Positions 25,284 through 52,354 of a stretch of DNA of 64,000 nt are shown here, piece by piece (positions within the stretch are counted from its first letter, which is position 1; each line of letters starts with the position of its first letter). The stretch comes from Branchipolynoe longqiensis (Eukaryota; Annelida; Polychaeta; Phyllodocida; Polynoidae). The DNA is taken from NCBI GenBank assembly GCA_030323885.1, contig CM059197.1, positions 28,601,178-28,665,177 on the forward strand, given 5' to 3'. The notes under the pieces were generated by a model that worked only from the letters and a program-made list of their open reading frames with translations, searched no databases and was not told the origin of the DNA. The translations under genes were made by a program, and so were the position numbers.

Positions 25284-25558
25284 GGCCGGGACGGCTAAAT
25301 CGGTTAGAACACTGGATTATTTCCTTTCCAGAAGGTCGTGGGTTCGAACCCCACTTTAGTCAAACCAATGATTTACAATGTTAATGTTTGTCGCGATCTA
25401 GCCTGGTACTTGGTGTAACTAGGATAAAGCAAGGACTGATTTGCCCAGAATCAGTCTGCCCTACTTGGATATTGGGTCATTGTACCAGTGGCCTGCTGTC
25501 CCAGTGAGGCAGCACTATAAAGTCGCAATGAAGCTGCACTGCCACAGGTGGGTACAAT
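25284..25558 (+). mobile_element. SINE-A, 3'-truncated
   Basis: Good head: GGACGGCTAAATCGGTTAGA and GTGGGTTCGAACCCCAC. Body follows to CACTGCCACAGGTGGGTACA, then stops before the GATATGACC domain. Confidence 0.85.
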
Positions 25559-27375: not shown

Positions 27376-27539
27376 TGAAGTTTGCGGTTGTAATTAAGTG
27401 AAAAATGAATGATGATATAAACACGACGCAAAGGAAGCAATTTTAAATTTTAAGTGCACACCAGCATGCTTAGATTTCCAGGAAAGAATGGCATGAATCT
27501 CCAGCACGTTCCTAGTAAGCGACCATTAACTCTATTCTC

Positions 27540-28790
27540 GTCACAATACCACCACCTCAACACCTCACCACCTCGCCACATCATTATATCATCACATCAC
27601 AAAACCAATTCACCACCTCCCAACGTCCATATCACAAAACCAACTCACGACCTCACCACATCATTATATCATCACATCACAAAACCAACTCACCACAACC
27701 CAACGTCCATATTACAAAACAAACTCCCCACCTGACCACATCATTATATCAGCACACAACAAAACCAACTCACCACCTCCCAACGTCCATATCACAAAAC
27801 CAACTCACCACCTCACCACATCATTATATCATCACGCAACAACACCAACTCACCACCTCACCACATCATTATATCATCACATCATCACACAACAAAACCA
27901 AGTCACCAACTCACCACCTCCCAACGTCCATATCACAAAGCCAAACCACAAGCTTATCACATCATTATGTCATCACATCAGAAAACCAACTCACCACATC
28001 CCAACGTCCATATCACAAAACCAACTCACCACCTCACCACATCATTATATCATTACACAACAAAACCAACTCACCACCTGCCAACATCACCACCTCACCA
28101 CCTCACCAGCTCACCACATCGTTATATCATCATCTCACAAAACCAACTCACCAAATCACCATCTCCCCCACCTCCCCCACCTCCCCACATCATCACCTCA
28201 CCATATCATCATATCATCAAAACTTTACAAAACCACCTCAGGACACCACCACATAACCACATGACCACAAAGCCAACTCCCCACCTCCCCACCTCCCGAC
28301 CTCCCCACCTCCCCACCTCATCACCTCACCACCTCACCACCTCACCACCTCACCACCTCACCACCTCACCACCTCACCACCTCACCACCTCACCACCTCA
28401 CCACCTCACCACCTCACCACCTCACCACCTCACCACCTCACCACCTCACCACCTCACCACCTCACAACCTCACCACCTCACCACGTCACCACATCATCAT
28501 CTCACCACCTCACCACCTCACCACCTCACCACCCTATCACCTCAGAACCTCACCACTTCACCACCTCACCACATCACCACCTCATCACCTCACCACCTCA
28601 GAACCTTACCACCTCACCACGTCACCACATCATCATCTCACCACCTCACCACTTCACCACCTCACCACCTCACCACCTCACCACCTCACCACCTCACCAC
28701 CTCACCACCTCACCACCTCACCACCTCACCACCCTGTCACCTCAGAACATCACCAGCTCACCACGTCACAATACCGTTTGCACATGTCCC
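27540..28790 (+). repeat. (CCACCTCA)n satellite with a longer-unit flank
   Basis: 27540-28290 has longer units built from CATCATTATATCATCACA, ACAAAACCAACTCACC and CAACGTCCATATCAC. 28326-28464 is an almost pure 8-bp CCACCTCA array of about 17 units, with further arrays to 28735. A-C composition is extreme. The His/Thr/Pro/Ser open frame is an artefact of an array lacking stop codons. Confidence 0.95.
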
Positions 28791-28823
28791 ATACCTTTAG
28801 GAACTTTTCAGATGGACGAAACC

Positions 28824-29110
28824 TTAAAGTTGTGTGGTGTAATTTTATTGAGTTACTGCCATTTTCCTAGATACATATATTAGATTGATTGCTATAATTG
28901 ACTGTGCTCTATTTTAGAGTAACTTTTAGCTTAAACGACTAAATGTGCAGATCTTTTGATGTGAAGACATACAACATTAACGTTGATGCGCGCATCGAAA
29001 TTCTGATGGCATATGCTTCACCAGTAACATCCTCTATTAAATGTAATTGAATATGAATAAGCATTGAATATGAGGTTACACTGTTAGTAGAATTGGATAC
29101 GGTTATGTAA
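28824..29110 (-). mobile_element. MITE-1, right part decayed
   Basis: TTAAAGTTGTGTGG at the left (TTAA 28824-28827), TCTGATGGCATATGCTTCAC and AGTAACATCCTCTATTAAAT inside. The right terminal repeat was not found. Confidence 0.6.
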
Positions 29111-29218
29111 CATTACATATTGCTATGACTCTCCTTAAATCCCAGATTAACAAACAAACAAAAGCTGCAAGATGTATCTGTTCGAGGGCCCTAGGGTGTA
29201 CTGGACGCCTGTAAGTTG

Positions 29219-29538
29219 ATTGGTTGTTGGGGTTTTACGTATTGGCAACATCTAAGGTCATATCAGGACGGGTACCTAGTTGTTACAGGCACACTCATGG
29301 CGACTTTATAGTGCTGCCCCACTGGAAAATCAGGCCGCCGGCACCATGCCCGATATCCCAGTCAGTCACATTTTCCTGACACTGAGCTAACCAGTTCTTG
29401 CCATATCCTGTTAATGCTGAGCGCCAAGCTAGGGAATGACAAGTATCAATTGAAAATCATTGGTTTGACTCGACTGTGAACTGAACTGCCGACCTTCTGC
29501 ATGGGAGGCCTGCGCTCTACCACTTCGGCCACTGCTGC
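29219..29538 (-). mobile_element. SINE-A, full length
   Basis: GGTTGTTGGGGTTTTACG tail side, GGCGACTTTATAGTGCTGCC, CACATTTTCCTGACACTGAG, CATTGGTTTGACTCGACTG, and head CTCTACCACTTCGGCCACTG. It lies just outside duplicated block A. Confidence 0.9.
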
Positions 29539-29618
29539 ATGTAAGTGCAGACCAGTGATGGGTTGCAAAGTCAGGCATGTACCAACACCTCTACTCCTTA
29601 TTCTACTGAGTTGTGCCT

Positions 29619-29998
29619 AAAGGCCCTGTCACATATCACCAGCTTGGGGGAAACAGAAAGAAACCGAACAAAGTCTGTTGATATCCGGCAAAGTCCGGTT
29701 TGTGTCTGTACAAGTTTTGAACATGCATAAAACTTGGAATGGATGCCGCCATATTGACGGCTACGTTTCTTGTCCAGTTTGAGCCCATTTACTCTGCTTA
29801 CTGTCCATTGGCTATCCGTTCATGTCCGTTTCATATCCGTTTCATGTCCTTTTCATGTCCGTTCGTCCAGCGCCCATTGACCCGATCTCGCAACATTTTG
29901 ACACATTTTAATACATTTTGATACTTATCATGCCGAATACCATCGGACTAGACAATTCTGTCCGTTGCTCAATCCGGCAAAGTGTGACAGGCACTTTA
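29619..29998 (+). mobile_element. MITE-2 copy, block A
   Basis: AAAGGCCCTGTCACATATCA at the left, GGCAAAGTGTGACAGGCAC at the right, with about four TTCATGTCCGT-type 11-mers and a TTTTGACACATTTTAATACA block. The orthologous or paralogous copy is 39305-39687. Confidence 0.85.
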
Positions 29999-30057
29999 CC
30001 AAGAGACACGCTGGCAGTAATTGGACAGCTAGATGGAGAACACAACTAGCAAATAGC

Positions 30058-30675
30058 TTGTTTGTTGTTTTTACCTCCTAGCAACAGCTACGGTCATATT
30101 GGGACATGTACCAAATTGGTACAGTGCACACTTTCAATGACTTTATAGTGCTGCCCCACTGGGGATCAAGTCACCAGCATCATGACCCAATTTTGCATAC
30201 ATTATCCTAATACTGTGCTATTAGTTGTTTTTACCAAACCTGACGATTTTCATTCAAGACATAACTCTTCAAATAGCCCCACTGGGGGATCAAGTCACCA
30301 GTATCATGACCCAATTGTGCATACACTATCCTTATACTGTGCTATTCGTTGTCGTTACCAAACCTGACGACTGTCATTCAAGACATAACTCTTCAAATAA
30401 CCTCATACCCCAACCTCACAAAGCCACAGCGTAAACTGAGTATCCCTACTAAAATTAGCGCACAGGGTATGTATATACCAAGATGTCGCAAACATAGCAA
30501 CAACAAAACTATCGCATCCATTATCCTGATACTGTGCTGTCCTGTTAATGCCTAGCGCCAGGTTTGGTAATGACAACTTATAATTTTGTGAGTCATTGGT
30601 TGGACTAGGCTGCGATTCTCACTCCCGACCTTCCATACGGGAAGCCTGCGCTCTACCAATTCACCCACTGCATCC
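30058..30675 (-). mobile_element. SINE-A interrupted by a 121-bp tandem duplication and other sequence
   Basis: The 3' domain at 30058-30197 (CTCCTAGCAACAGCTACGG) and head side at 30508-30675 (CATTATCCTGATACTGTGCT, CTCTACCAATTCACCCACTG) flank foreign DNA. From CCCCACTGGG to ACTCTTCAAATAG, a ~121-bp unit starting near 30158 is repeated at about 30279. The same structure is in block B, so it predates the duplication. Confidence 0.75.
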
Positions 30676-30894
30676 TCTCGACTAGCAAATAAGCAGCACT
30701 GTGATGTCTGCCAATGTTATCTGGCCATGTTGATAATCTACATAATGATCTATTCACATGTGATAACCAACACTGCGCAGCACGCCAAACAGGTGACACT
30801 GAGTGTGGCGCATGTGCACCAAGAGCCGTCGTTTGGTAACCATTTGCAAATTGACACATACATAATTTATACATCTTGTGCACATATATCATGT

Positions 30895-30990
30895 GTTATT
30901 GTTATTGCGAGAGTTGTGGCAGTTGATCTTTCAGATGTTGTGGTTTGTCATTTGGAATTAGAGAACTGATCAGTTTCAGTGCATCCGAAT
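30895..30990 (-). pseudogene. LINE C-terminal relic
   Basis: The minus strand reads a decayed C-H-N-S-R-N-N motif, matching the start of the WNALP-type LINE remnant at 40139-40390. Only the edge of the RT C-terminus is present. Confidence 0.45.
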
Positions 30991-31734
30991 AAATGATGAC
31001 TGTCATTCAAGACATAACTCTTCAAATAACCTCATACCCCAACCTCACAAAGTCACAGCATAAACTGAGTATCCCTACTAAGACTAGCTCATGGTGTATG
31101 TACGTACCAAAATGTTGCAAACATGACAACAACAAAACTAACATCATTATGGCTAGCCACTAACACCTAAGATGGCAAGGCAACTAGAAAATTGAGACTA
31201 TTGCTGTTCAGCGATGAAAACAAACCGCAATGTGACGTACTGATTATGGACAGCGTCAATACGCCATCACCCACAAAAAGATGACATTCATGACCATCCC
31301 GGTCTCTGACGTCAGTCGCAAGACTTAATGTTGTGAGCAGCAGCTCACTATGCACTTTGTTCCCTAGACCTCTGGGACATGCGCAGAGGGCCCTGACCTT
31401 AATGGCAGCGGCGTAGATAGATTACCTCTCTCCATCTAGGTAGGGGACGGCGACGAGAGATTCTGGGCAGCTGTTCGGGGTGTGCTCGGAGTGCTGGGCG
31501 TGGTGCGGGGGGGTGCGGGTGGGGGTGCTGGGAAGTGATGTTGGGATGCCGGAGCACGTGGGTGGGAGGTGCCGGGAGGTGAGCCGCCATTATCCCTTTC
31601 CTTGGTTATATTTAACACATTGTCAACATCTTACTTAGTGTTAGGAGTAGTGGTTGCAACTTAACTTGTTTGCCAGTATGGTCGCACCTACAAATCAGGG
31701 TCATTGAACCTCACAGGTGAGTCCTCCTTACAGA

Positions 31735-31830
31735 GTATGTGGATGGGATGGTCCTTGTGGTTAGAACACCCATAGTACCTGCCCTTATAGCAGGTCATGA
31801 GATAAATCCCTGGCCGAGGTCAAGTTGCAT
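31735..31830 (+). mobile_element. tRNA-like SINE head
   Basis: GGGATGGTCCTTGTGGTTAG then CAGGTCATGAGATAAATCCC resemble A and B boxes at tRNA spacing. The equivalent in block B is at 41758-41848. No body was recognised. Confidence 0.4.
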
Positions 31831-31947
31831 AATCTGATAGATTTTACTGTCTGTCTAATTATTTACATAAATATATTAGCGAATCGATATGACTATTTAA
31901 TTACATCTAATTTAGCAGGTTTATTTTCTTAGAAGTATATTTAACGT

Positions 31948-32560
31948 AATCTTGGAGCAGGTAGGGTCATTTGTGTATCTGGGCCATTTAATAACTAGTG
32001 ATGGCGGATGTGAAAGAGAGATTAAACGGAGAATAAACATTGCCAAAACAACATTTCTAAAGATGCAGAAAGTACTAACATCTAGAGACATAAATATAAA
32101 AACAAGACTCCGACTGCTAAAATGCTATGTGTGGTCTACACTTTTATATTGCTGCGAGACATGGACTTTGAAAAAAAGCAATAACAACAAAGCTCGAGGC
32201 ATTTGAAATGTGGCAATACAGAAGAATGTTAAAAATTCCATGGACAGCAATGATAAGCAATGTGGAGGTCCGAACAAGAATGAAAATAAAGAGAAAGATA
32301 ATACAAATGATCAAAAAACAGAAAAATTAAATACTTTGGCCACATGATACAACTCCAGGAATCACAGAGAAGAATACTTGAAGGGAAGATAGAAGGGAAA
32401 AGACCAAGAGGGAGAAGGAGAACAACATGGATGGACAACATCACTGAGTGGACACCAATGAGCTATGTGGAATGCGTGAGAGGAACGAATGACAGGAAGA
32501 GATGGAGGTCCTTGCAGCCAACCTTCTTCGAGTAGCCGGCACCCATTGATTGATTGATTG
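31948..32560 (+). mobile_element. 5'-truncated RTE-like LINE with target-site duplication
   Basis: A 613-bp insertion flanked by the 11-bp direct repeat ATATTTAACGT (31937-31947 and 32561-32571). Block B has a single ATATTTAACGT at about 41956 and no insert, so this is an empty-site/filled-site pair. The insert encodes the C-terminal part of an RTE-like polyprotein: F-V-Y-L-G-H, C-Y-V-W-S-T-L, C-E-T-W-T, Y-F-G-H and G-R-R-R-T-T-W-M-D. Frame changes lie near 32190 and 32340. It ends in (TTGA)n. Dead on arrival but relatively young. Confidence 0.9.
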
Positions 32561-32782
32561 ATATTTAACGTGGAGTCATGCAAAATTAATACAGTGGTAG
32601 ATATTTGTTGTTTGTTAACCCTTATTCAAACAACATATTGAGATGGGTATGTGACATCGGTGACTAGAACTGATATTGTGAGTTACAGGTCACTTTGCCG
32701 CTTACTTTGTTTAACAGATCTTATCAAGAATTCCCACCAGTGACCCGCCACCTTATAAAGTCCATGGCTGGCATCTATGGTT

Positions 32783-33290
32783 GTGTAGGCAGGCTACAGT
32801 GAAATCAATACAAGGAAAAAGAGAAAGGAAGAATATAAAGAGTAAAGGTAGCGAGAGGGCCAAGCCCTCAGGTTTATTATTTATAGTGGTACATGCATCT
32901 GGTATGGAATACCACCTGACCATATTCTCCAATGAGAATCAAGCATCTAGAGCTCTCCCAATGAACATCAAGCATTCCTGTGTCCCCAGGGTTACAGTGC
33001 ACTGCCCACCACCACCATGCAGCATGGCTCCCTTGGCCACCACCTGCCCTGAGCTGAGTGTGTTGGTGATCCATGACTAACAGAGTGGGGAGGGGGTAGT
33101 GAGTAGAGCTCCAAGTGCCCCTTACACACTATCTGACTAACACACAATGAATATTTACCATGATTAAACTATCACCAGCAACTACATAAACACATTCATG
33201 CACCTGGCCCTATATACCTTTTACACCAATAGACCATTTGCATTCCCCCACCAATGCGTTTTATCAGAATATTTTACTACCTGACGTCAA
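32783..33290. repeat. REP-2 copy, block A
   Basis: GTGTAGGCAGGCTACAGTGA, AAGCCCTCAGGTTTATTAT, CCAATGAGAATCAAGCATC, CCCACCACCACCATGCAGC. A third, diverged copy outside the duplication is at 62391-62880, so this is a dispersed family. No coding sequence or terminal repeats recognised. Confidence 0.7.
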
Positions 33291-33362
33291 TGCTAAGAAC
33301 TAATGTTGTGGTTAGCAGGTCACTACTCATCCCGTGTTGGTGTCCGGCATATCACTATGAAT

Positions 33363-33475
33363 GCCAAAACTAATTTGACATGTTTCAACAATTATATCCA
33401 AAGGTCTTTATTTATGTTAATGTTATTTCAAACTAAAGTAAAGTAGATCATACAAATTATCCCAACACGTTTATC
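33363..33475 (+). mobile_element. MITE-1 fragment
   Basis: GCCAAAACTAATTTGACATG, TTATTTCAAACTAAAGTAAA match the right half of 8276-8646. Also in block B at about 42756-42868. Confidence 0.5.
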
Positions 33476-34934
33476 ATAGATGTATTTTACATCTCAACGT
33501 ATATGATAATGTAATTTTAAGTGAATAATATATGTTATTAAGAAAGAATATGGTATACGTGTCTAGGAGTTTTGTGCGGTTATATAGTTGTTGAGTTTTA
33601 TTTGTGGAAGCGCTGAAGTGAAATGACCTTAAAGGGTACCAGGGTGCAACACCAAACAAACAAACAATACAGCATATTATAAACCTTTTTCATTAGTAAG
33701 AACCTCATCATCTCTTGACATACTTAAAAAGGTCCTCAAGGCTCCTCTGTTCAAACCAGCTTTTTATGATGACTGTCATTTCTCCATATTTTAATTGTTT
33801 TAATGAAGTTGTAAAATATGTCAAATCATGATTTTTTTATTGCACATAGTCTGAGACTAACTGCTCCTAGTAAGGCCGCTGTATTAAATTGTCATTATTA
33901 TTAATAGCATTGTTATTAGTTTAATATGATGCACAATGAAGAAAGTACACATGCGCACACACATAAAGAGCCAGCATTGCAGGTATATCAACAGAATCAA
34001 GGCGGGAAAATATTAGTACATTTATGCTATGACTAAGGTATGCAGAATACCTTCATATCCTACATCTTATGTTATCTTCCTTTAGTTTTCTTCTCATAAC
34101 TATTTGACTGAAACAGAAGTCAGTTTGACCAGCACAATAATATCATTTATTTCGGGGATTAGTCCTCTGATTTACATATATACACAATATTTTACCTCGG
34201 TAAACAGCCTCAGGCTAGGGACAGGTAAGCACGTCCGGTACCAGCAATTAGCATATACAACTCACGACTGGATAACGTGTCGTTGGGTTGCTCCGGCAAA
34301 ATTAGTCTACATACAAGCAAATACGCAGTAAGTATTATAAAAACTGTGGTTAGCTTAATTATGATGCATTAGAGCATCAATATGGAAAGTTTAGACTTTC
34401 GTTGGTCCAATTTGGACGAGTTATTTGGTTATAAACAACCAAGGATAGAACACTCGAGTGGGTTTCGCGACAGGAACCAAACCGGTCATTAGCGGTTATG
34501 TCAACACCCGGGTCACCGTGTGACTATGGGTAGAGATGTGGGTTTCGCCCTATCTCATGTGGAAATTCTCTCGTACTCTAATAGAGAGTAATGTTGGAGA
34601 TGCTCCTGGGTTTCTTTTATAGACTCCCCTAGACAAAACTTTTTCAGGCGTTTCTCCGAGTTTCGTAGCATTTTCTCCAACTTGTTGACGTAGTAGTCAC
34701 AGGTGGGAGAAGTGTGCGGAACAGAGGGATGGGCGGGCCGATACACTGGTCCCGACCCCGCGTAAGGTTTGGCTTGACCCACAACCCACGCACAAATTTA
34801 GCTTATTACGCCTGTGTTATAACGGTATAAAACACGTTCTTTAACACCAATAGATGTCCAAATGAGTTTGAAACAACCATATTGTGACATATATATATAC
34901 CGGGACTGACCAAAAATGTTTGTTTCAGTTCCCG

Positions 34935-36277
34935 ATGGCCACGAAGCGGAGTAAGCGCGGTGGCAGCAGCAGCCGAGGGGCGTGTTCCGAGTGGGAGTGG
35001 ACGAGGAGTACGACTCCTCACCTGTGTTGTCGGCAGGGCCGTCGACACAGCCCCGGGCGCATATCCTCTCCGACCCGGACGAGGACGCAGTGCCTGATGT
35101 GCCTGCGCCTCCAGATTGGGAGGCTCGCTTTGCAAGATTGGAAAGCCACATCTTGACTGCCAAATCGCCTGTGTCTCGGAAGCGGCGTAGGCCGAGTGTC
35201 CAAGAGGATTCGTTTGAGGATTTCTTGGACACAGACTCGGCGGTGGAGCTTAAGGCTCCTCCTCCTCCTTCTCCTAAACGGAGGAAGAAGAAGAAACAGG
35301 TGATTTCTTCGGGTGATGAATTCACCAAGGAGCGGGCAGAGTCTGGTTTGCGCAAAAAGCGGAAGACTAAGTCCAAAAAGAAGAAGAGGAAGAGGAAATA
35401 TTCTTCTTCTGAGTCGTCCACTGAGTCTACTTCTACGGAATCAGACTCAGACACCGTATATGAAGGGGTCTATGCGGACATTGGCACTAAAGTGGCTAAG
35501 AAGGTGGAGAAGCCAAAGGCTAAGCGGGTTAAAACCACTACGCTTATGCGCGAGACCGTGAATGGTCATTTTCGCACGTTCAAACCGGCGGAGGTTATCT
35601 CCAAGTTAGGAGATGAGTTAACAGGCATAAAGGGTGTTCCCAACTCCATCATTAAAGAAATGGATCGGGATGTCAATATGACGGATGACCGTAAGAAGTT
35701 TGAGGATGTGTTGCACACAGTGCATAAGGCAGTGTTGGCTACCCTAACAGCTATTGTTCCTGTGGCTAATAGGATGCAGAGTGAAAATAAGTTCTCGTCT
35801 TTGGCTAAGACAATGGACAAAGGCATTGCAGTACTAGCGGCGGCAGGTAATTACCTGTCGTTTCGAAGATATGAAAATGTCTTCAAGTCAGTTTGCACAG
35901 ATGCTGGCAAAGAAGTGGCTCGCTCTAAGAAGGTTACCGATAATGAGGGGAAGGAGTTTACGCTTTATCTTGCTCCAGAGCCGATTAAAGGGAAACCTTT
36001 AGATAACACCAAGATGTTTGGCGGTCAACTACAATACCTCTATAAAGAGGTAGAGACTGCAGCCAAGAGTGGCAAAAACATGGATGGCAAGAAGAAACAG
36101 GAAGCTCCTCGTTTCAAAAAGTCACGAGGGGATTTTCGTCCACGACGGTTCACCAGAGGAACCAGACCGAGTTCAAACTTCGGTCAAGGGTTTCGGGGCT
36201 GGACCGACAACACCGCACGGCCAATAGGCCGAGGGTTCAACTCGTCGAGACCTTTCCCCAGGGGCGGGTCCAAGTAG
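34935..36277 (+). pseudogene. DIRS Gag-like protein, one frame change near the start
   Basis: Inferred RNA-binding structural protein of the DIRS particle. A plausible ATG at 34935 gives M-A-T-K-R-S-K-R, but its frame is one base off the long frame, which opens after TAA at 34952-34954 and runs to TAG at 36275-36277. A single indel between 34950 and 34982 would reconcile them. The N-terminal third is acidic then strongly basic (K/R runs from about 35275 and 35365) with an S/T/E stretch (35400-35455). The middle is predicted globular. The C-terminus is R/G/F-rich (from about 36115), an RGG-like RNA-binding tail. Length (~430 aa) suits DIRS Gag. The reverse transcriptase frame overlaps its end. 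Confidence 0.7.
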
Positions 36278-36342
36278 AGGTCCAAACACAAACTTTACAA
36301 GTCCCTGCAGCCTCTAAAAACACACAAACTGTAAGCAACTTT

Positions 36343-36938
36343 GTGGCTGGTAATATTAGTAATCATATTTCTGAGTGGCACAAAATTACTAGTGACCAAG
36401 AAATTATAGAAATAGTTAGGGGTGTTCAAATTCCTTTTACACAAATTCCTGTACAAAGTATAATACCTTTTCCATATAACATTCAACCAGTTGAACGAGA
36501 CGCACTAACTAAACAGGTACATAAATTCTTTGAGAAAGGAATTATACAAAAAGTGACACACTGTTCAGGACAGTTTATTTCAAACATTTTCTCGAGACCG
36601 AAGCCTAATGGTGATGTTCGAATGATCCTGGATTTAACAATCCTTAATAAAAGGGTGGAATATCGACATTTTAAAATGTTCTCTCTAGATACGGCACGAG
36701 ATCTGATTACACCAGATGCGTGGATGGCTAGTGTTGATTTACAGGATGCATATTATACGCTTCCCATAATGGAACAATACCGAAAATTTCTTCGATTTAT
36801 TTGGGATAACCAACTCTATGAGTTTACCTGTATGCCGAATGGCTTAGCTTGTGCGCCACGTTTATTTACTAAATTGCTTAAACCTGTTTTCTCGGTAATG
36901 GCGAGGAAGGGTCATATAATGTTTCCATACATAGAGGA
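36343..36938 (+). CDS. DIRS-type reverse transcriptase, N-terminal half, truncated by gap
   Basis: Copies the element's RNA into DNA. Blocks in order: F-F-E-K-G-I-I-Q-K-V (about 36520); F-S-R-P-K-P-N-G-D-V-R-M-I-L-D-L (36590-36640); A-S-V-D-L-Q-D-A-Y-Y (about 36727-36760), with the first catalytic Asp; and C-M-P-N-G-L-A-C-A-P-R-L-F-T-K-L-L-K (about 36829-36885), the DIRS form of RT block B'. The frame reaches Y-I-E at 36930, just where the Y-x-D-D active site is expected, and is then lost in Ns. The frame is open upstream across the Gag stop for at least 60 nt in the -1 phase relative to Gag, so it may be expressed by frameshifting. No ATG is evident: 36343 is GTG. Confidence 0.85.
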
Positions 36939-37435
36939 NNNNNNNNNNNNNNNNNNNNNNNNNNNNNNNNNNNNNNNNNNNNNNNNNNNNNNNNNNNNNN
37001 NNNNNNNNNNNNNNNNNNNNNNNNNNNNNNNNNNNNNNNNNNNNNNNNNNNNNNNNNNNNNNNNNNNNNNNNNNNNNNNNNNNNNNNNNNNNNNNNNNNN
37101 NNNNNNNNNNNNNNNNNNNNNNNNNNNNNNNNNNNNNNNNNNNNNNNNNNNNNNNNNNNNNNNNNNNNNNNNNNNNNNNNNNNNNNNNNNNNNNNNNNNN
37201 NNNNNNNNNNNNNNNNNNNNNNNNNNNNNNNNNNNNNNNNNNNNNNNNNNNNNNNNNNNNNNNNNNNNNNNNNNNNNNNNNNNNNNNNNNNNNNNNNNNN
37301 NNNNNNNNNNNNNNNNNNNNNNNNNNNNNNNNNNNNNNNNNNNNNNNNNNNNNNNNNNNNNNNNNNNNNNNNNNNNNNNNNNNNNNNNNNNNNNNNNNNN
37401 NNNNNNNNNNNNNNNNNNNNNNNNNNNNNNNNNNN
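36939..37435. other. Assembly gap, 497 Ns
   Basis: Sequence unknown. A DIRS element enters from the left and an unrelated I-like LINE leaves on the right, so any open frame drawn across the gap is an artificial chimera. Confidence 1.
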
Positions 37436-39279
37436 TCGATGGTCAGTTCTGAACGGTTTCAAATTTTCCAAGACCAAAACAGTCTGCATGCACTTCTGCC
37501 TGCTGCGTAGAATACATGCGGAACCGGAGCTGACCCTGGATGGGGATCCCATTAAAGTCGTTGAGAAAACCAAATTTCTGGGCCTCATTCTCGATGCAAA
37601 ACTGTCTTTTGTGCCACATATAAAGTACCTGAAAACAAGATGCCTGAAAGCGCTGGATATTCTGAGGGTGCTGTCCAGCTCAGAGTGGGGAGCGGACAGA
37701 GATGTTCTGCTCTCCGTGTACAGAACCTTGGTTTGTTCACGAGTGGATTACGGCAGCATAGTATATGGTTCCGCAAGGAAATCATATATTGGGCTGCTAG
37801 ACACGATCCACCACCAGGGACTGCGCTTGGCCCTTGGGGCCTTCCGCACCTCACCAGTTCAGAGCCTTTATGTCGAAGCCAATGAACCATCACTTAATAA
37901 CAGGAGAATCAAACTGGCCATGCAATATGTAGTCAAGATAAAAACTAATGCATTGAATCCTGCACACAATTGTCTATTCGAGCAACATGACGAATCCAGG
38001 TATGAAGCCAGGCCAAATTACATCCGGCCACTGAGGCTCCGAATGAAACCTCATTTGGAGGCCTTAGGCGTGGATTTGGACGTGTTGGAGGATGCCAAAG
38101 TCCCAGAACATCCCCCGTGGTCGTTGAGAAAGCCATCGGTTATCCTCCGACTCACGGAACTGAGGAAATCTGGGACACATCCACTCGAGTACAAAGGACT
38201 GCATGCAGAGATTCAAGGCCAGTTTGCAGACCACCTCTCCATATACACTGATGGTTCGAAAGACCAAAGCCGGGTAGCTGCTGCGGCAGTCTGCCGACGG
38301 GAAAAATTTGGTGTACGTTTGCCCGATCAGAGCTCGATTTTCACTGCAGAGGCCCGAGCACTCCTTCTCGCTTTGGAGTGTATCGAGGTATCCAACCACA
38401 CTAACTATGTTATATACAGTGATTCCTTCTCTTGCCTCCTGGCTGTTGCTGGACTGAAAACGAATCACCCTATTCTAGCAACGGTCATTTATAAAATGAA
38501 CCAACTGACAACAGATGGGTATGATATCCACCTGTGCTGGGTGCCTGGCCATGCTGGCATACAAGGAAACGAACGAGCTGATCGGGCTGCGAAGAAGGCC
38601 CTGAACTGTGATCTTGAACCGTGTCTGATCCCTCACTCTGATCTGAAACCACTAATAGCCACCCACATAAAATCCAAATGGCAACATGAGTGGGATGAAA
38701 ACATTAATAAACTTAAAGAAATTGAACCATCTGTGGGAAAGCCACCACAGACTCATGCGGGAGGTCGGCGGGACCAAGTGGTCCTTAGCCGCTGCCGTAT
38801 TGGCCACTCGTGGCTTACACATGCTTTTCTGCTCAAGGGGGAACCTCCCCCTGAATGTATTGGGTGTCAGTCCCCACTGACACTCAAACACATTTTACTA
38901 AGTTGCGTTGATTTTTTGGCCCTGCGCCAACGGTTCTACACTGCAGGCAGTATGCATGACCTTTTTACTAAGGTAAAACAGGAAAACATTTTAGCCTTTT
39001 TGAGGGCAGCTGGACTGTACCACCTTATATAGTTTACTAAATGGATTCTATTAATTATTAATGAAACTTTTCTTTTTCTATGGGAATTTGTTTCCCTTGA
39101 CCACAGATATATGATTGTGAGCTTTCTAATTTAATTAGTGTCTATTGGCACATAATTGATTGTCTGCTTTTACATGTAAAAGCGATGGTTTGAACAAAAA
39201 ACAAACATTTCTCGCCGTGAATATGGCCTATGCTGCCGACACGGCGTAAAGCAACCACCAATCAATCAATCAATCAATC
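37436..39279 (+). mobile_element. I/Nimb-like LINE, 3' part
   Basis: Enters from the gap inside the RT domain, carries RNase H, a C-terminal zinc knuckle and a ~240-bp 3' UTR, and ends in an (AATC)n tail at about 39256-39278. Block B begins 5 bp later. Same family as the minus-strand fragment at 48503-49083. Confidence 0.85.
37437..39032 (+). CDS. I-like LINE polyprotein C-terminus: RT thumb, RNase H, zinc knuckle
   Basis: Open from the gap edge to TAG at 39032. It starts with the post-catalytic RT motif N-G-F-K-F-S-K-T-K-T at about 37452, then F-L-G-L-I-L-D (about 37578). RNase H is intact: Y-T-D-G-S (38243-38257), A-E-A-R-A-L (about 38346), S-D-S (38418-38426) and G-H-A-G-I-Q-G-N-E-R-A-D (about 38548-38583) supply the D-E-D-D residues. 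RNase H would remove RNA from the RNA:DNA hybrid. A C-x2-C-x7-H-x4-C knuckle lies at 38857-38907. No internal stops or frame changes in ~530 codons, so this copy is recent. The upstream RT catalytic core, endonuclease and ORF1 are not visible. Confidence 0.9.
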   Translation, partial: RWSVLNGFKFSKTKTVCMHFCLLRRIHAEPELTLDGDPIKVVEKTKFLGLILDAKLSFVPHIKYLKTRCLKALDILRVLSSSEWGADRDVLLSVYRTLVCSRVDYGSIVYGSARKSYIGLLDTIHHQGLRLALGAFRTSPVQSLYVEANEPSLNNRRIKLAMQYVVKIKTNALNPAHNCLFEQHDESRYEARPNYIRPLRLRMKPHLEALGVDLDVLEDAKVPEHPPWSLRKPSVILRLTELRKSGTHPLEYKGLHAEIQGQFADHLSIYTDGSKDQSRVAAAAVCRREKFGVRLPDQSSIFTAEARALLLALECIEVSNHTNYVIYSDSFSCLLAVAGLKTNHPILATVIYKMNQLTTDGYDIHLCWVPGHAGIQGNERADRAAKKALNCDLEPCLIPHSDLKPLIATHIKSKWQHEWDENINKLKEIEPSVGKPPQTHAGGRRDQVVLSRCRIGHSWLTHAFLLKGEPPPECIGCQSPLTLKHILLSCVDFLALRQRFYTAGSMHDLFTKVKQENILAFLRAAGLYHLI

Positions 39280-39304
39280 AAACCTTATTCTCCTGAGTTG
39301 TGCC

Positions 39305-39687
39305 TAAAGGCCCTGTCACACATCACCAGCTTGGGGGAAACAGAAAGAAACTGAACAAAGTCTGTTGATATCCGGCAAAGTCTGGTTTGTGTATGTACAA
39401 GTTTTGAACATGCATAAAACTTGGAATGGATGCCGCCATATTGACAGCTACATTTCTTTTCCAGTTTGAGCCCATTTAGTCTGCTTACTGTCCATTGGCT
39501 ATCCGTTCATGTCCGTTTCATATCCGTTTCATGTCCTTTTCATGTCTGTTCGTCCAGCGCCCATCGACCCGATATCGCAACATTTTGACACATTTTAATA
39601 CATTTTGATACTTATCATGCCGAATACCATCGGACTAGACAATTCTGTCCGTTGCTCAATCCGGCAAAGTGTGACAGGCACTTTACC
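39305..39687 (+). mobile_element. MITE-2 copy, block B
   Basis: Counterpart of 29619-29998 with scattered substitutions and the same termini and four 11-mer units. Confidence 0.85.
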
Positions 39688-39742
39688 AAGAGACACGCTG
39701 GCAGTAATTGGACAGCTAGATGGAGAACACGACTACCAAATA

Positions 39743-40704
39743 GCTTGTTTGTTGTTTTTACCTCCTAGCAACAGCTACGGTCATATTGGGACAGGTACCA
39801 AATTGGTACAGTGCACACTTTCAATGACTTTATAGTGCTGCACCACTGGGGGATCACGTCACCAGCATCATGCCCCAATTTTGCATACATTATCCTAATT
39901 CTGTGCTATTAGTTGTTTTTACCAAACCTGACGATTGTCATTCAAGACATAACTCTTCAAATAGCCCCACTGGGGGATCAAGTCACCAGCATCATGACCC
40001 AATTTTGCAAACATTATCCTGATACTGTGCTATTCGTTGTCGTTACCAGACCTGACGACTGTCATTCAAGACCTAACTCTTCAAATAATCTCATACCCCA
40101 ACCTCACAAAGTCACAGCATGTCAACATTTGATTTACTTTGATTAAGCGCATCGAGTACCGGATGTATGCAATATTGCAGCCCCCTCCAATGCTTATCCA
40201 GTCTGCCTTTGAAGGCGTTGATAGAAGGGGCTTCTATCACATGTTTAGGCAGTGCATTCCAGGCATTTACTATCCTGTTACAGGCATTTACTATCCTGTT
40301 ATTGCGAGAGTTGTGGCAGTTGTTCTGTCAGATGTTGTGGTGTATCATTTGGAATTTAGAGAACTGATCGGTTTAAGTGCATCCGAATAAATGACGACTG
40401 TCATTCAAGACCTAACTCTTTAAATAACCTCATACCCCAACCTCACAAAATCACAGCGTAAACTGAGTATCCCTACTAAAATTAGCGCACAGGGTATGTA
40501 TATACCAAGATGTCGCAAACATGGCAACAAAAAAACTATCACATACATTATCCTGATACTGTGCTATCCTGTTAATGCCTAGCGCCAGGTTTGGTAATGA
40601 CAACTTATAATTTTGTGAGTCATTGGTTGGACTAGGCTGTGATTCTCACTCCCGACCTTCCATACGGGAAGCCTGCGCTCTACCAATTCACCCACTGCAT
40701 CCTC
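39743..40704 (-). mobile_element. SINE-A interrupted, block B
   Basis: 3' domain at 39743-39890 and head side at 40546-40704, as in block A. Between them are the 121-bp tandem duplication and an additional B-only segment. Confidence 0.75.
40139..40390 (-). pseudogene. CR1/L2-like LINE C-terminal relic, block B only
   Basis: The minus strand reads C-H-N-S-R-N-N-R-I-V-N-A-W-N-A-L-P-K-H-V, then I-E-A-P and F-K-G-R-L: the canonical C-terminus of a CR1/L2-group reverse transcriptase, similar to the end of the 8925-10056 remnant. It includes a small internal duplication (GGCATTTACTATCCTGTT twice, about 40262 and 40284). The catalytic domain is absent. Confidence 0.75.
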
Positions 40705-41523
40705 TCGACTAGCAAATAAGCAGCACTGTGCTGTCTGCCAATGTTATCTGGCCATGTTGGTAATCTACGTAATGATCTATTCACATGTGATAACCAACAC
40801 TGCGCAGCACGCCAAACAGGTGACACTGAGTGTGGTGCATGTGCACCAACAGCCGTTGTTTGGTAACCATTTGCAAATTGATGCATACATAATTTATATG
40901 TCTTGTGCACATGTATCATGTGTTATTGTTATTGCGAGAGTTGTGGCAGTTGATCTTTCAGATGTTGTGGTTTGTCATTTGGAATTAGAGAACTGATCAG
41001 TTTCAGTGCATCCGAATAAATGATGACTGTCATTCAAGACATAACTCTTCAAATAACCTCATACCCCAACCTCACAAAGTCACAGCATAAACTGAGTATC
41101 CCTACTAAGACTAGCTCATGGTGTATGTACGTACCAAAATGTTGCAAACATGACAACAACAAAACTAACATCATTATGGCTAGCCACTAACACCTAAGAT
41201 GGCAAGGCAACTAGAAAATTGAGACTATTGCTGTTCAGTGATGAAAACAAACCGCAAACAGCGTCAATAAGCCATCACCCAAAAAAAGATGACATTCATG
41301 ACCATCCCGGTCTCTGACGTCAGTCGCAAGACTTAATGTTGTGAGTAGCAGCTCACTATGCACTTTGTTCCCTAGACCTCTGGGACATGCGCAGAGGGCC
41401 CTGACCTTAATGGCAGCGGCGTAGATAGATTACCTCTCTCCATCTAGGTACGGGACGGCAACGAGAGATTCTGGGCAGGTGTTCGGGGTGTGCTAGGAGT
41501 GCTGGTGTGGGGAGGGGTGTGCT

Positions 41524-41550
41524 GGGGGGGGGGGGGGGGGGGGGGGGGGG
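41524..41550 (+). repeat. 27-nt G homopolymer
   Basis: Lies in block B. The matching place in block A (about 31500-31535) has interrupted G-rich sequence. Length may be unreliable in the assembly. Confidence 0.9.
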
Positions 41551-42175
41551 TGCTGGGAAGTGATGTTGCGATGCCGGGACGAGTGGGTGGGAGGTGCCGG
41601 GAGGTGACCCGCCATTATCCCTTTCCTTGATTATATTTAACAAATTGTAAACAGCCTACTTAGTGTTACGAGGAGTTGTTGCAAAACCTTAACTTGTTTG
41701 CCAGTATGGTCGCTCCTACAAATCAGGGTCATTGAAACTGACAGGTGAGTCCTCCCTACAGGGTTTGTGGAGGGGATGGTCCTTGTGGTTAGTACACCCA
41801 TAGTACCTGCCCTTATAGCAGGTCATGGGATCAATCCCTGGGGAGGTCAAGTTGATGGATTTTACTTTATGTCTAATTATTTACATAAATATATTAGCGG
41901 ATCGATATGACTATTTAATTACATCTAATTTAGCAGGTTTATTTTCTTAGAAGTATATTTAACGTGGAGACATGCGAAATTAATACAGTGGTATATATGT
42001 GTTTTTTGTTAACCTTTATTCAAACAACAGATTGAGATGGGTACGTGACATCGGTGACTATAACTGATATTGTGAGTTACAGGTCACTTTGCCGCATACT
42101 TTGTTTAACAAATCTTATCAAGAATTCCCACCAGCAACCCGCTACCTTATAAAGTCCACAGCTGGAATCTGTGGT

Positions 42176-42680
42176 TGTGTAGGCAGGCTATGGTGAAATC
42201 AATACAGGCAAAAAGGGAAAGGAAGAGTATAAAGAGTGAAAGTAGAGAGAGAGAGCCAAGCCCTCAGGTTTATTATTTATAGTGGTCCATGGATCTGGTA
42301 TGGCATACCACCTGACCGTATTCTCCAATGAGAATCAAGCATCTACACCTCTAGCAATGAACATCAAGCATTCCTGTGTCCCCATGGTTACAGTGCTCTG
42401 CCCTCCACCACCATGCGGCGTGGCTCCCTTGGCCAGCACCTGCCCTGAGCTGAGTGTGTGGTGATCTGTGACTAACAGATGGGGGAGAGGGAGTGAGTAG
42501 AGCTTGAAGTGCCCCATACACACTATCTGACTAACACACAATGACTATTGACCATGAGTAAACTATCACCAGCAACTACATAAACACATTCATGCACCTG
42601 TCCATATATACCTTTTACACCAATAGACCATTTGCATTCCTCCACCAAAGCGTTTTATTGGAATATTTTACAACCTGACG
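42176..42680. repeat. REP-2 copy, block B
   Basis: Counterpart of 32783-33290 (GTGTAGGCAGGCTATGGTGA, AAGCCCTCAGGTTTATTAT). Confidence 0.7.
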
Positions 42681-43603
42681 TCAATGCTAAGAACTAATGT
42701 TGTGGTTAGCAGCTCACTGATCATCCCATTTTGGCGTCCGGCATATCACTATGTATGCTAAAACTAATTTGACTTGTTTCAACAATTATATCCAAAGGTC
42801 TTTATTTATGTTAATGTTATTTCAAACTAAAGTAAAGTAGATCATGCAAATTATCCCAACACGCTTATTATAGATGTATTATACATCTCAAAGTATATGA
42901 CAAGGTCATTTTAAGTGAATAATATATGTTATTAAGAAAGAATATGGTATATATGTCTAGGAGTTTTGTGCGGTTATATAGTTGTTGAGTTTTATTTGTG
43001 GAAGCGCTGAAGTGAGATGACCTTAAAGGGTGCCAGGGTGTAACACCAAACAAACAAACAATACAGCATATTATAAACCTGTTTCATTAGTAAGAACCTC
43101 ATCATCTCTTAAGGTAGTTAAAAAGGTCCTCAAGGCTCCTCTGTTCAAACCAGCTTTTTATGATGACTGTCATTTCTCCATATTTTAATTGTTTTAATGA
43201 AGTTGTAAAATATGTCAAATCATGATTTTTTTATTGCACATAGTCTGAGACTAACTGCTCCTAGTAAGGCCGCTGTATTAAATTGTCATTATTATTAATA
43301 GCATTGTTATTAGTTTAATATGATGCGCAATGAAGAAAGTACACATGCGCACAGACATAAAGAGCCATCATTGCAGGTATATCAACAGAATCAAGTCGGG
43401 AAAATATTAGTACATTTATGCTATGACTACGGTATGCAGAATACCTTCATATCCTACATCTTATGTTATCTTCCTTTAGTTTTCTTCTCATAACTATTTG
43501 ACTGAAACTGAAGTCAGTTTGACCAGCACAATAATATCATTTATTTCGGGGATTAGTCCTCTGATTTACATATATACACAATATATATTCACATATATAC
43601 ATA

Positions 43604-43882
43604 TGTGGCAGCCTAGGTATGGCCCAGTATTGAATCAGGCTGAGGTAGGGGTTCCCCCAGGTACTCTTATGGGCACAAGCCTGCTGTGCCTACAAGACTC
43701 TTAGGTGCCTGAGTGCCCCATGTGATAAAGAGCAGTTAGCCAGGACCCCTGTGTAGATGACCAGGGGAGGTGGCTGGACTTCTGGAGAATGGACATGTCC
43801 ACACAACCTATAAACTAGGAATTAGACTCATCCTTCCCAGCCCTGGAGTGAACTACACCAGGACTACAGGTGAGTCACAACA
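43604..43882 (+). repeat. REP-1 copy
   Basis: GGGGTTCCCCCAGGTACTCT, AGGACCCCTGTGTAGATGAC, CTATAAACTAGGAATTAGAC and CACCAGGACTACAGGTGAG recur inverted at 55466-55737. It starts about 20 bp after the end of block B. Class unknown. Confidence 0.75.
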
Positions 43883-43905
43883 CATACATATTTTCGGCAG
43901 TACAG

Positions 43906-44262
43906 CAAAAACCCTATAATACTAAGATGGCATCAATTTTGCAGTGCCACCTTGTGGTGGGTTTGATCAGCACGGCTGCTGGTTGGTCTTTCACATGTAG
44001 ACACATACAATTATATTATACACGAGATAGGTAAGTATGAATACACATCAATATGAAATTGCTATGAACAAATACCCATCATCATCAGCATCATCATCAG
44101 CATTGCCATCATCAGACATCTTTCACATTCATATATACATTTATACATATAATATAGAACCTGTTTAACCAAGAGAACAGCCAGTGCACCAAGTGGTGGG
44201 TTTGATCATTTTGATTACAGAGTACAGGCTGAGTGAGCCATCTTAGTATAATAGGGTATTTG
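43906..44262. mobile_element. MITE-5, 26-bp terminal inverted repeats
   Basis: CAAAAACCCTATAATACTAA... (43906-43931) is inverted at 44237-44262 with two mismatches in 26. The 357-bp body holds two similar internal blocks (CACCTTGTGGTGGGTTTG near 43952; CACCAAGTGGTGGGTTTG near 44187) and (ATC)n-like sequence. No coding capacity. Confidence 0.8.
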
Positions 44263-44707
44263 AGTACAGTGAGTGTAGGTGGGAGGGGTAGTGGTGCGTG
44301 CACATATGGGTGGCGCCCCCCCAACGGATATGAGTGTGAGTAGGATGGAAGTTTAGGTGAATAGATAGGCTCCTCCAGTCGATGACTGAGGGAGGAGTTA
44401 GGACTGAGGAGCAGATGGAAGCTTCCGGCCTTATTATACTCGTATAATGGCTTTTACAGCATATATAGCTTGTATATATAGCGTATCAATTATGGCTATG
44501 TAAACCAAGGACGGGACACAGACAAAATTAGGCATTCCTAGTAAAACCGTTCTAAAAAATGCAGGATGGTAAACATCTCTATCATTTGCAAAACATTACA
44601 ACAAACGGATAGAGAAAAACAAAAGCATGGCTTAAATATATAGTTAATACTAAGCCGAAATGTCTCACTGGGCTATAAATAGCCAAGAGGTTGAGGACGA
44701 GGTAAAA

Positions 44708-45190
44708 TAGGATAATTATGTGAGACTTACCTTGGTACAGTTGACACATAATTGTTGTTTTACCGAGTCCGAGGCCTCGGATATTTGTATTCAAGTCCCA
44801 CCCTCCCTTCCCATTATGTTGGAGGTTTCTGGGCTTCGGTTTCCAAAGGAGATTTGAGCAAAATTGTTATAGCAGCTAATATCACATAGGAAACACTGGT
44901 TCTCATCTGATCACCAAAGTTAAGCAACGCTTGAGCCCCGTCAGTACTTGGATGGGCGACGACATTGGAACATGACGTGATGTAGAGATCCTGATAGAGG
45001 CTGATCGCCTCTGGCAAATTTGCTGAAGATTTTGTTAAAAAAGGAGATAGCCATAATTTCGGTAGGTTAGTTAAAGATCGATCGAGCGGGAGTGCTATAT
45101 CTCACAGGACTACAAATATCCGAGGCCTCAGACTTGGTAAAACAACAATTATGTGTCAACTGTACCAAGGTAAGTCTCACATAATTATCC

Positions 45191-45192
<2 letters not shown>
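44708..45192. mobile_element. TIR element enclosing a 5S rRNA-like sequence
   Basis: The arms at 44708-44798 and 45107-45192 are inverted copies with two substitutions and one 5-nt difference, including CCGAGGCCTCGG/CCGAGGCCTCAG and AACAACAATTATGTGTCAAC. Both outer edges read TAGGATAATTATG inward, compatible with a TA target. The central ~308 bp contains a full-length 5S-like sequence. A transcript would form an ~86-bp stem. No protein coding sequence. Confidence 0.85.
44870..44988 (+). rRNA. 5S rRNA-derived sequence (pseudogene or SINE3-type head)
   Basis: Colinear with animal 5S rRNA over its whole ~119 nt: ACACTGGTTCTCATCTGATC, CACCAAAGTTAAGCAACG (box A region) and AGTACTTGGATGGGCGAC (box C region) are near-consensus, while both ends are diverged (ending GATGTAGAGA). 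The internal polymerase III promoter may therefore survive while helix I pairing does not. It sits inside a TIR element, so it is not a member of an rDNA array. Known precedent: 5S-derived SINE3 families. Confidence 0.85.
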
Positions 45193-45242
<50 letters not shown>

Positions 45243-45596
45243 CATGGACTAACCATGGGAAATGAGCGGAAGTTAGGACAAGCTTTTCACACTCGGACTC
45301 TTCGCACACTTTGAATGACTATATGCCCACCAGTGACACCCACCAGTGTCACCCACCAGTGTCACCCCGTTCTTGTTCGCTGTTGAATCAATCACGTGAT
45401 TGTGAGGTTTTTGCGCCGTGGCTTCCACCATTGGATTTCAGTTAGGATTGATGCGAAGTGAATTACAAAATGTTAAAGGTAAAAAAAACAGGCAGCAACG
45501 ACTCATGCATCTCCAGAACAGCGGTGTCGGGGTTTAATTTCACTAATGGCCTTACATTGAGTTCATCCTGTTCAACTTATGGCACAGGGAGAATTG
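45193..45596. other. TA microsatellite and small tandem repeat
   Basis: (TA)n at about 45189-45243. Three 14-bp ACCAGTGTCACCC-type units lie near 45330-45366. The perfect palindrome CAATCACGTGATTG is at 45389-45402. No gene. Confidence 0.6.
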
Positions 45597-46060
45597 TTCA
45601 TGCTACCGTATTGCTCATACGTTCTTGATGCATCATTTTATTTTGGCCGGGGACCATCCACCTCAGTGTGAGCACTGCGGGTGCATACTGACAGTGTATC
45701 ACATTTTGGTGAGATGTCCTCATGTACAACCAGTTAGAGATGATGTATTTGGAAATGAGGGTGTGATGCAGTCATTCCGATTCCATCCACAACTCGTTAT
45801 TAAATCTTTGAGGGAAACTGGATTTTCCCAACAATTAATTTCCATTTTTAACTTGAAAAGTCGTTTACTGTTGATTTTATTCATCATATACCACTTGTGA
45901 TTTGACCACAGTTGTATGTTCTTTTGGCATACATTGATGTGCTCTATTTTACCTGTTTGAAATGTAATATCTTAGTTAGATATGTGTAACCACTGTATGA
46001 TCCTCCACAGCCAGTGTTTAGTTTGTGTGTTGGGTTGTCATTCCACAAATAAACAAACAA
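45597..46060 (+). pseudogene. I/Nimb-like LINE C-terminal remnant
   Basis: Reads R-I-A-H-T-F-L-M-H-H-F (compare R-I-G-H-S-W-L-T-H-A-F in the 37437-39032 protein), then a knuckle C-E-H-C-x7-H-x4-C at about 45673-45718, then a short C-terminus ending TGA at 45900. A 3' UTR ends in (AAAC)n-like sequence near 46060. A different family from the 37436 element. 5'-truncated; upstream frame closed. Confidence 0.8.
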
Positions 46061-46320
46061 AGGCATTGTTGAAGTGCCCGATAATCAAGAAGACACCACA
46101 CTGGAAAGCTATCAGAACCATCCGCCTCCCCATCCTCCCATCCTCCTATCCTCCCATCATCACACCCAGCTTCCCATCTCCCCGCCGTCCCACGCTCTCA
46201 TTCTCCCACCCACACATACACCTGCACCCACTCACCTGCACCCTACTCTGACAAAAACTGACCCTCCTCAGCTGTCTACAGTTGCATAACAACAAATATA
46301 GGCATGGGGATATTTACAGC

Positions 46321-46983
46321 CTTTAAGGGCTGTCACACTACGACGTATGGCCTTAGCATATGCCAACGTATGCGATTTTCGACCAACACGTCAACACGTC
46401 GGCATACTGTGTCATACGTTACGTATACATTGGGCATACATTGAGTACACTGGGGATATGGCATCATAGGTTGTCATAGGTTGGTGTAGGTCAAGCCACT
46501 AAAATATGTTTGTGCATGTTCAAAAATGTCAATGTATGTCACAATATGGCTCATACCTTTCTCATATGCTTGGTGTGCACTCGGTGTGTGTCAGCATACG
46601 TTATGCACACATTAGGGGTAGGTCGGGATAGGTTGGAACACGTTAGCCATACGTTCATCCTGTTGGGAATCTGCAGTCCGCATACAGCCAACAGATGCAT
46701 AACATACTTAGAAAGTATGCCTGCAGTATCTCCAGCATACTTTAATGTGTATGCCATGCTTCTAGCGATGAAGTAACATACATAATGCTGGTCAGCACAC
46801 TGTGAGCGTATGTGAGCATTTTGTAAATGTTTTGCGAACGGTTTGCGAGGCACATGAACGTTTTCATACGCTAGCAATAGGTCAGACATAGGTTCTGCAT
46901 ATGTTACGTTCTCTGTACATTGTGTGTATGCCAGCATGGTCAGCATATCAATATGTACCAGTATGTTACATTTTGCGGCATTA
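46321..46983 (+). mobile_element. MITE-2-like element rich in CGTATG motifs, right end missing
   Basis: Left end CTTTAAGGGCTGTCACACTA resembles the MITE-2 end. The interior is full of CATACGTT/GCATAC variants in both orientations. No matching right terminus before the SINE-A at 46988, which may have truncated it. Confidence 0.45.
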
Positions 46984-52351: not shown

Positions 52352-52354
52352 ACA

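What the first reader, a model, noticed from the sequence alone, without database searches (positions are those of the whole stretch)
29597..43584. Tandem 4.3-kb blocks that look like two alleles assembled in series
Blocks A and B are collinear direct copies with a few percent mismatch by eye. Between them lie only a DIRS element, a 497-N gap and a LINE. The left flank of B is a LINE tail and the right flank of A is a DIRS start, so each contig seems to end inside a retroelement absent from the other copy. That is what two heterozygous haplotypes, each broken at its own insertion, would give if scaffolded end to end. A true tandem duplication needs two extra coincident retroelement insertions at the breakpoints.
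Basis: partly seen in the sequence, partly recalled or inferred. Interest (0 to 1): 0.8.

Follow-up and report, generated by a model that had tools for sequence, protein, structure and literature searches.

The report
Probable allele pair misassembled in tandem
A 4-kb stretch appears twice in a row in this draft animal-type genome, most likely because the assembler laid the two parental versions end to end, so it is probably an ordinary assembly error rather than a real duplication.

Summary
The two collinear blocks are real: A 29596-34190 and B 39283-43584, with 3,942 aligned bases, 187 mismatches (4.7%) and 11 indels. The copies part at the 3' end of a LINE on the left of B, and at the start of a DIRS-like element on the right of A. 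The contigs end inside those two elements, at a 497-N gap.

Order and orientation are what two haplotypes give if each contig breaks in its own insertion: left-A-DIRS and LINE-B-right. Block A also holds a third insertion with an 11-bp target-site duplication; B keeps the empty site. Divergence is mosaic (2.7, 7.7 and 2.4% in three segments).

The best explanation is a "tandem allele misassembly", a named and well-documented assembly error (Small et al. 2007, PMC1868934). A true duplication is not excluded. No reads or genome could be examined: the own-genome search did not complete (ten calls). The positive 497-bp gap is evidence against the allele model, and selective constraint or gene conversion could also make the mosaic. 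The species was not identified.

The parts
29596..34190 (+). Block A (putative haplotype 1 copy), 4,595 bp
39283..43584 (+). Block B (putative haplotype 2 copy), 4,302 bp
34191..36938 (+). 5' part of a DIRS-like retroelement, cut off by the gap in mid reverse transcriptase; starts where A/B homology stops
   Evidence: RVT_1 profile 2-144/205 in window:36046-36938; boundary; DIRS name inferred from layout and recalled RT motifs; no second copy in the window to confirm its left end
36939..37435 (.). 497-N scaffold gap between the two contigs
37436..39282 (+). 3' part of a LINE with RNase H, ending in an (AATC)n-type tail that directly abuts block B
   Evidence: RNase_H E 1.6e-15; aligns to P0002 from residue 332 of 861; the 3' end agrees with a second copy at 48525-49084, whose tail differs
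31948..32560 (+). 613-bp insertion inside A, absent from B, probably a 5'-truncated retroelement, ending in an (ATTG)n tail
   Evidence: only a sub-threshold Pfam match (DUF7392); retroelement nature inferred from tail and target-site duplication
31937..31947 (+). 11-bp target-site duplication, left copy (ATATTTAACGT)
32561..32571 (+). 11-bp target-site duplication, right copy; B has a single copy within 41935-41980
40083..40421 (+). 339 bp present in B and missing from A, bounded by near-identical direct repeats (likely a repeat-mediated deletion in A; inferred)

Best explanation
This is a tandem allele misassembly. One contig carries haplotype 1 (left flank, block A, then a haplotype-1-only DIRS-like insertion). 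The next contig carries haplotype 2 (a haplotype-2-only LINE insertion, block B, then right flank). Each contig broke inside its own retroelement, and the scaffolder placed both in series with a 497-N gap. In the animal there would be one copy of the block per chromosome. Shown: the blocks, their boundaries, the insertions, the target-site duplication and the mosaic divergence. Inferred: that A and B are alleles at one locus, and the scaffolding step.
For: (1) Homology begins at the LINE 3' end (A ...CTCTACT|CCTTATTCT; B ...AATCAAA|CCTTATTCT) and ends at the start of the DIRS-like element (shared ...ACACAATAT, then TTTACC in A and ATATTC in B). The LINE's 3' end is independently fixed by a second copy. 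(2) The order left-A-DIRS / LINE-B-right is the order that allelic contigs with private insertions must give. (3) The left flank of A (28500-29596) shares nothing longer than 15 bp with the LINE contig, the DIRS-like part nothing longer than 13 bp with 43585-46500, and the two outer flanks nothing longer than 10 bp with each other. (4) A third private insertion lies in A, with an 11-bp target-site duplication and a clean empty site in B. (5) Mismatches are clustered: variance/mean 3.3 per 200 columns, reached by none of 2,000 random placements; longest identical run 325 columns against a maximum of 264 in those placements. Segments diverge by 2.7%, 7.7% and 2.4%, as expected of recombining alleles. 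(6) The 4.7% divergence is near the 4.39% SNP rate between lancelet haplotypes (PMC4284660, passages). (7) The 497-bp gap cannot hold the rest of both elements if they are complete: the DIRS-like RT stops at profile position 144 of 205, and some 330 residues of the related protein P0002 lie before the part of the LINE that is present.
Against: No reads, depth, long reads, map or second assembly were available. A positive gap estimate is atypical: Small et al. state that read pairs leapfrogging a misplaced allele force a predicted overlap. They removed tandem misassemblies from 395 of 1,496 contig pairs with a predicted overlap (26%), 581 of 12,434 with gap zero (5%), 436 of 4,124 without estimate (11%), but only 148 of 16,747 with a positive gap (1%) (PMC1868934). 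By my arithmetic, 13,492 known bases plus the gap exceed what either allele would span unless its retroelement is longer than about 9 kb. The blocks lie 2.7 and 1.8 kb inside the contig ends, outside the screen of Kelley and Salzberg, and their identity is borderline for it (95.3% of aligned columns; BLAST pieces 93.0-96.4%). Gene conversion between true tandem copies, or uneven constraint, would also make a mosaic: mismatch counts by phase are weakly uneven in the two low-divergence segments (21/19/10 and 4/8/1; P 0.13 and 0.06) though not in the high one (41/39/44; P 0.86).
Confidence: 0.74

Rival explanations
1. True tandem duplication of a region containing the block, followed by independent insertion of a DIRS-like element beside copy A and a LINE beside copy B, and a 624-bp insertion in A.
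For: The copies are collinear, in the same orientation, on one scaffold, with a positive gap. Divergence of 4.7% fits a duplication of moderate age. Insertions after a duplication are as easy as insertions in a haplotype.
Against: If the duplicated unit is just the block, both elements must have landed at its two ends, and the remainder of a DIRS-like element must fit with LINE sequence in about 497 bp. If the unit is larger, the rest of the unit must be hidden in a gap sized at 497. No repeat longer than 10 bp is shared by 28500-29596 and 43585-44700; microhomology at the junction itself cannot be tested, as it would lie in the gap. Breakpoints inside pre-existing LINE and DIRS copies are unlikely, because A lacks the LINE on its left and B lacks the DIRS on its right.
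Confidence: 0.15
2. A and B are paralogous segments at two different loci, and the contigs were misjoined through repeats.
For: Repeat-rich contig ends favour false joins. No gene was found that ties the left and right flanks to one locus: Pfam scans of 151 of 206 ORFs found no host gene.
Against: Scaffold adjacency itself. The homology limits coincide with two insertions, one per copy, rather than with ordinary duplication ends; a paralogy would need its ends hidden beyond the insertions.
Confidence: 0.09
3. The block is itself a mobile element present in two copies.
For: It contains repeat pieces (a MITE-like element at its left end and SINE-like pieces with relatives elsewhere in the window).
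Against: No repeat longer than 9 bp between its first and last 200 bases, no Pfam domain above cut-off in the ORFs of the block that were scanned, no other full-length copy in the window, and ends set by other elements.
Confidence: 0.02

Closest known systems
Tandem allele misassembly, Ciona savignyi genome (Small et al. 2007, Genome Biol 8:R41, PMC1868934; passages seen; authors recalled)
   Same: Two alleles of a region placed next to each other in one supercontig; direct orientation; kb scale (reported median 3.5 kb in the predicted-overlap class, 1.4 kb in the positive-gap class).
   Different: Here the gap is positive and each copy is separated from its contig end by a private retroelement insertion; read pairs could not be checked.
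Mis-assembled duplicated overlapping contigs (Kelley and Salzberg 2010, Genome Biol 11:R28, PMC2864568; outline, Background, Genomes section and part 1 of 2 of Methods read)
   Same: Adjacent contigs with matching heterozygous sequence at facing ends and different outer flanks.
   Different: The alignments stop 2.7 and 1.8 kb from the contig ends instead of within 300 bp; identity is borderline for their >95% cut-off (median of their cases 98.1%).
Tandem misassemblies corrected by HaploMerger in the Chinese lancelet (PMC4284660; passages seen)
   Same: Same kind of error named, in a genome with 4.39% SNP polymorphism between haplotypes.
   Different: No individual case is described in the passages seen; the species of the window is unknown.

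Membership tests
Tandem allele misassembly (Small et al. 2007) | Two similar copies adjacent, same orientation, on adjacent contigs of one scaffold | tested here: met
Tandem allele misassembly (Small et al. 2007) | Sequence absent elsewhere in its own haplome and fewer than two hits in the other | not tested
   Own-genome search did not complete
Tandem allele misassembly (Small et al. 2007) | Paired reads leapfrog the extra allele, forcing a predicted overlap | tested here: inconclusive
   No read pairs available; the gap is +497 N, which is not the expected sign
Duplicated overlapping contigs (Kelley and Salzberg 2010) | Alignment of more than 300 bp within 300 bp of both contig ends | tested here: not met
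   Block ends lie 2,748 and 1,847 bp from the gap
Duplicated overlapping contigs (Kelley and Salzberg 2010) | Identity above 95% | tested here: inconclusive
   95.3% of aligned columns without gaps; BLAST pieces 96.4, 93.0 and 94.1%
Duplicated overlapping contigs (Kelley and Salzberg 2010) | Mate-pair distances improve when the copies are merged | not testable with these tools
   No reads
DIRS retrotransposon (for 34191-36938; features recalled) | Reverse transcriptase plus tyrosine recombinase, inverted terminal repeats, no target-site duplication | tested here: inconclusive
   RT found; recombinase, right terminus and right-hand target junction lie beyond the gap
True tandem segmental duplication | Both copies on one chromosome, with full depth | not testable with these tools
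   No reads or long reads

The most novel reading that the evidence does not exclude
The arrangement is physically real: a tandem duplication whose junction consists of a truncated DIRS-like element and a LINE, one starting and the other ending exactly at the duplication breakpoint, as if the two retroelements had mediated or repaired the duplication.
Probability: 0.07. Interest if true: 0.45.

Novelty: already known. Interest (0 to 1): 0.12.

Why it matters
If read as a real duplication, the locus would inflate copy-number and segmental-duplication counts and hide heterozygous differences: about 4.7% mismatches, three private insertions and a 339-bp indel over one 4-kb stretch. The practical lesson is small: a screen that requires homology close to the contig ends, such as that of Kelley and Salzberg, would pass over this sort of pair, because private insertions separate the homology from the ends.

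Tried and rejected
Duplication with breakpoints inside pre-existing LINE and DIRS copies: rejected, since A has no LINE on its left and B no DIRS on its right. LINE inserted inside the DIRS-like element: rejected, since the LINE 3' end is followed by block B, not by the rest of the DIRS. Block as a transposon: rejected for want of terminal repeats and of Pfam domains above cut-off.

Finding a host gene spanning the gap to prove one locus: 151 of the 206 stop-to-stop ORFs of at least 66 aa were scanned against Pfam in two batches (77 and 74). Of the 55 not given, 18 lie in the DIRS/LINE stretch (searched apart), 36 are frames of 66-89 aa, and one is a 201-aa frame in a tandem array at 28265-28867 (its by-sequence listing shows 61, but six of those were in the batches by reference). 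The batches gave two RVT_1 matches, traced to 8829-9182 (below cut-off) and 9106-9318 (above cut-off), and one sub-threshold DUF7392 match (31916-32203); no host gene.

Species identification through proteins: the LINE search found 1,390 proteins, 120 listed, highest identity among those 60%; the DIRS-like ORF1 search found 10, unnamed; the RT search found 195, 120 listed. Most have no name; named ones were bivalve-symbiont records and 'ribonuclease HI' for the LINE, and a Stylophora pistillata record and one 'hypothetical protein' for the RT. So the species is unknown.

Paper searches: six; apart from the three papers named above only listings were seen.
Full report
What is there. The window is repeat-rich DNA of animal type (inferred from its retroelements), about 43% G+C, with one run of 497 N at 36939-37435. 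Self-comparison finds one collinear pair over 1 kb apart from local tandem arrays: block A 29596-34190 and block B 39283-43584. Aligned end to end they have 3,942 shared columns, 187 mismatches (4.74%, K2P 0.049, 85 transitions and 102 transversions) and 11 indels. Leaving out a G-rich tract the mismatch rate is 4.48% (173 of 3,861). Block A is 4.6 kb and B 4.3 kb; the difference is mostly two large indels.

The boundaries. On the left, A reads ...CACCTCTACT|CCTTATTCTACTGAG and B reads ...AATCAATCAAA|CCTTATTCTCCTGAG. On the right, both read ...CATATATACACAATAT, then TTTACCTCGGTAAACAG in A and ATATTCACATATATAC in B. What precedes B is the 3' end of a LINE: an open frame with an RNase H domain (E 1.6e-15), a 3' untranslated part and an (AATC)n tail. 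A second, 5'-truncated copy at 48525-49084 on the minus strand (95.4% identical) ends at the same place with a different tail, so the end is the element's own. What follows A starts a retroelement with a 440-aa open frame and a second frame with a reverse transcriptase that the gap cuts in mid-domain (RVT_1 profile positions 2-144 of 205). I call it DIRS-like from its layout and from recalled RT motifs. The recombinase and right terminus that would prove it are not present, and its left terminus has no second copy in the window to confirm it.

Differences between the copies. A carries a 624-bp insertion relative to B: 613 bp ending in (ATTG)n, flanked by an 11-bp duplication ATATTTAACGT at 31937-31947 and 32561-32571, where B has the sequence once. 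This looks like a retroelement insertion after the two copies parted. Its identity is unproven: the only Pfam match is a sub-threshold DUF7392, and a 67% DNA relative lies at 23822-24091. B has 339 bp not in A, bounded by near-identical direct repeats, so A probably lost it by repeat-mediated deletion (inferred). Mismatches are clustered: per 200 columns the variance/mean ratio is 3.3, reached by none of 2,000 random placements, and the longest identical run is 325 columns against at most 264 in the same placements. The three segments, whose limits I chose after seeing the counts, differ by 50 of 1,825 (2.7%), 125 of 1,614 (7.7%) and 12 of 503 (2.4%). Mismatches by phase are even in the divergent segment (41/39/44, P 0.86) and weakly uneven in the other two (21/19/10, P 0.13; 4/8/1, P 0.06), so constraint on the conserved segments is not excluded.

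Explanation. If haplotype 1 carries a DIRS-like insertion at the right limit and haplotype 2 a LINE at the left limit, contigs that break inside these elements are left-A-DIRS and LINE-B-right, which is what is seen. The homology must then run from one insertion point to the other, and it does. A true duplication of just the block needs both elements to have landed on its ends, and needs the rest of a DIRS-like element (missing RT end and, by general knowledge of the family, RNase H, recombinase and right terminus) to share about 497 bp with the LINE's 5' part. About 330 residues of the related protein P0002 lie before the part of the LINE present here, though LINEs are often 5'-truncated (general knowledge). 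A larger duplication removes the coincidence but hides its middle in a gap sized at 497. Breakpoints inside pre-existing elements are made unlikely by the outer flanks. No shared repeat longer than 10 bp was found between 28500-29596 and 43585-44700 that could have driven a duplication; the junction itself cannot be inspected.

Evidence against, and limits. Small et al. state that read pairs leapfrog a misplaced allele, so the assembler is forced to predict an overlap. They removed tandem misassemblies from 395 of 1,496 contig pairs with a predicted overlap and 581 of 12,434 with gap zero, but from only 148 of 16,747 with a positive gap. Here the gap is positive; this lowers my confidence. The pair also falls outside the Kelley and Salzberg screen by its distance from the contig ends, and its identity (95.3% of aligned columns; BLAST pieces 93.0 to 96.4%) is borderline for it. 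No host gene was found that ties both flanks to one locus (151 of 206 ORFs in the batches). The own-genome search did not complete in ten calls, so copy number, the missing element ends and the species' heterozygosity could not be measured. The species is unknown; the figure of 4.39% SNPs in the Chinese lancelet is a yardstick, not an identification.

Known kind. The phenomenon has a name, "tandem allele misassembly", and a literature: Ciona savignyi (PMC1868934, passages); vertebrate drafts, with 13,159 of 13,571 overlapping contigs judged mis-assembled in chimpanzee (PMC2864568, Table 1); and the lancelet, whose Figure 1 legend lists tandem misassemblies among the errors corrected (PMC4284660). 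The only twist is that private insertions sit between the homology and the contig ends. I file it as already known and score it low.

Noticed in passing
57948-59542: Tandem array, 43-bp unit (about 37 copies, 86% matches); self-BLAST offsets suggest a higher-order period near 129 bp.
   Followed up: no
60383-61435: Second tandem array with a 40-bp unit, about 26 copies.
   Followed up: no
27539-28770: Degenerate tandem array (8- and 80-bp periods) that leaves long open frames; those scanned have no Pfam match. It ends about 0.8 kb left of block A.
   Followed up: partly
44868-44988 +, 25293-25362 +, 51663-51737 +: Full-length 5S rRNA match (53 bits) and a tRNA match (32 bits), and an ARAGORN tRNA-Ser(AGA) call; possibly parts of SINEs rather than genes.
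   Followed up: no
29619-29997 and 39306-39684; relatives at 22839-23141, 50570-51037, 52001-52355: MITE-like repeat with short inverted ends (AAAGGCCCTGTCACA / TGTGACAGGCACTTT, seen by eye), five places in the window counting A and B.
   Followed up: partly
34191-34204: The DIRS-like element starts with a short perfect inverted repeat TTTACC-TC-GGTAAA at its first base, which could be a recombinase site; seen by eye, not tested.
   Followed up: no
8829-9318 +: Remnant of another reverse transcriptase, in two frames (RVT_1, 23.5 bits and 31.3 bits).
   Followed up: no
30153-30399 and 39843-40087: A 124-bp tandem duplication shared by A and B, hence older than their split.
   Followed up: no
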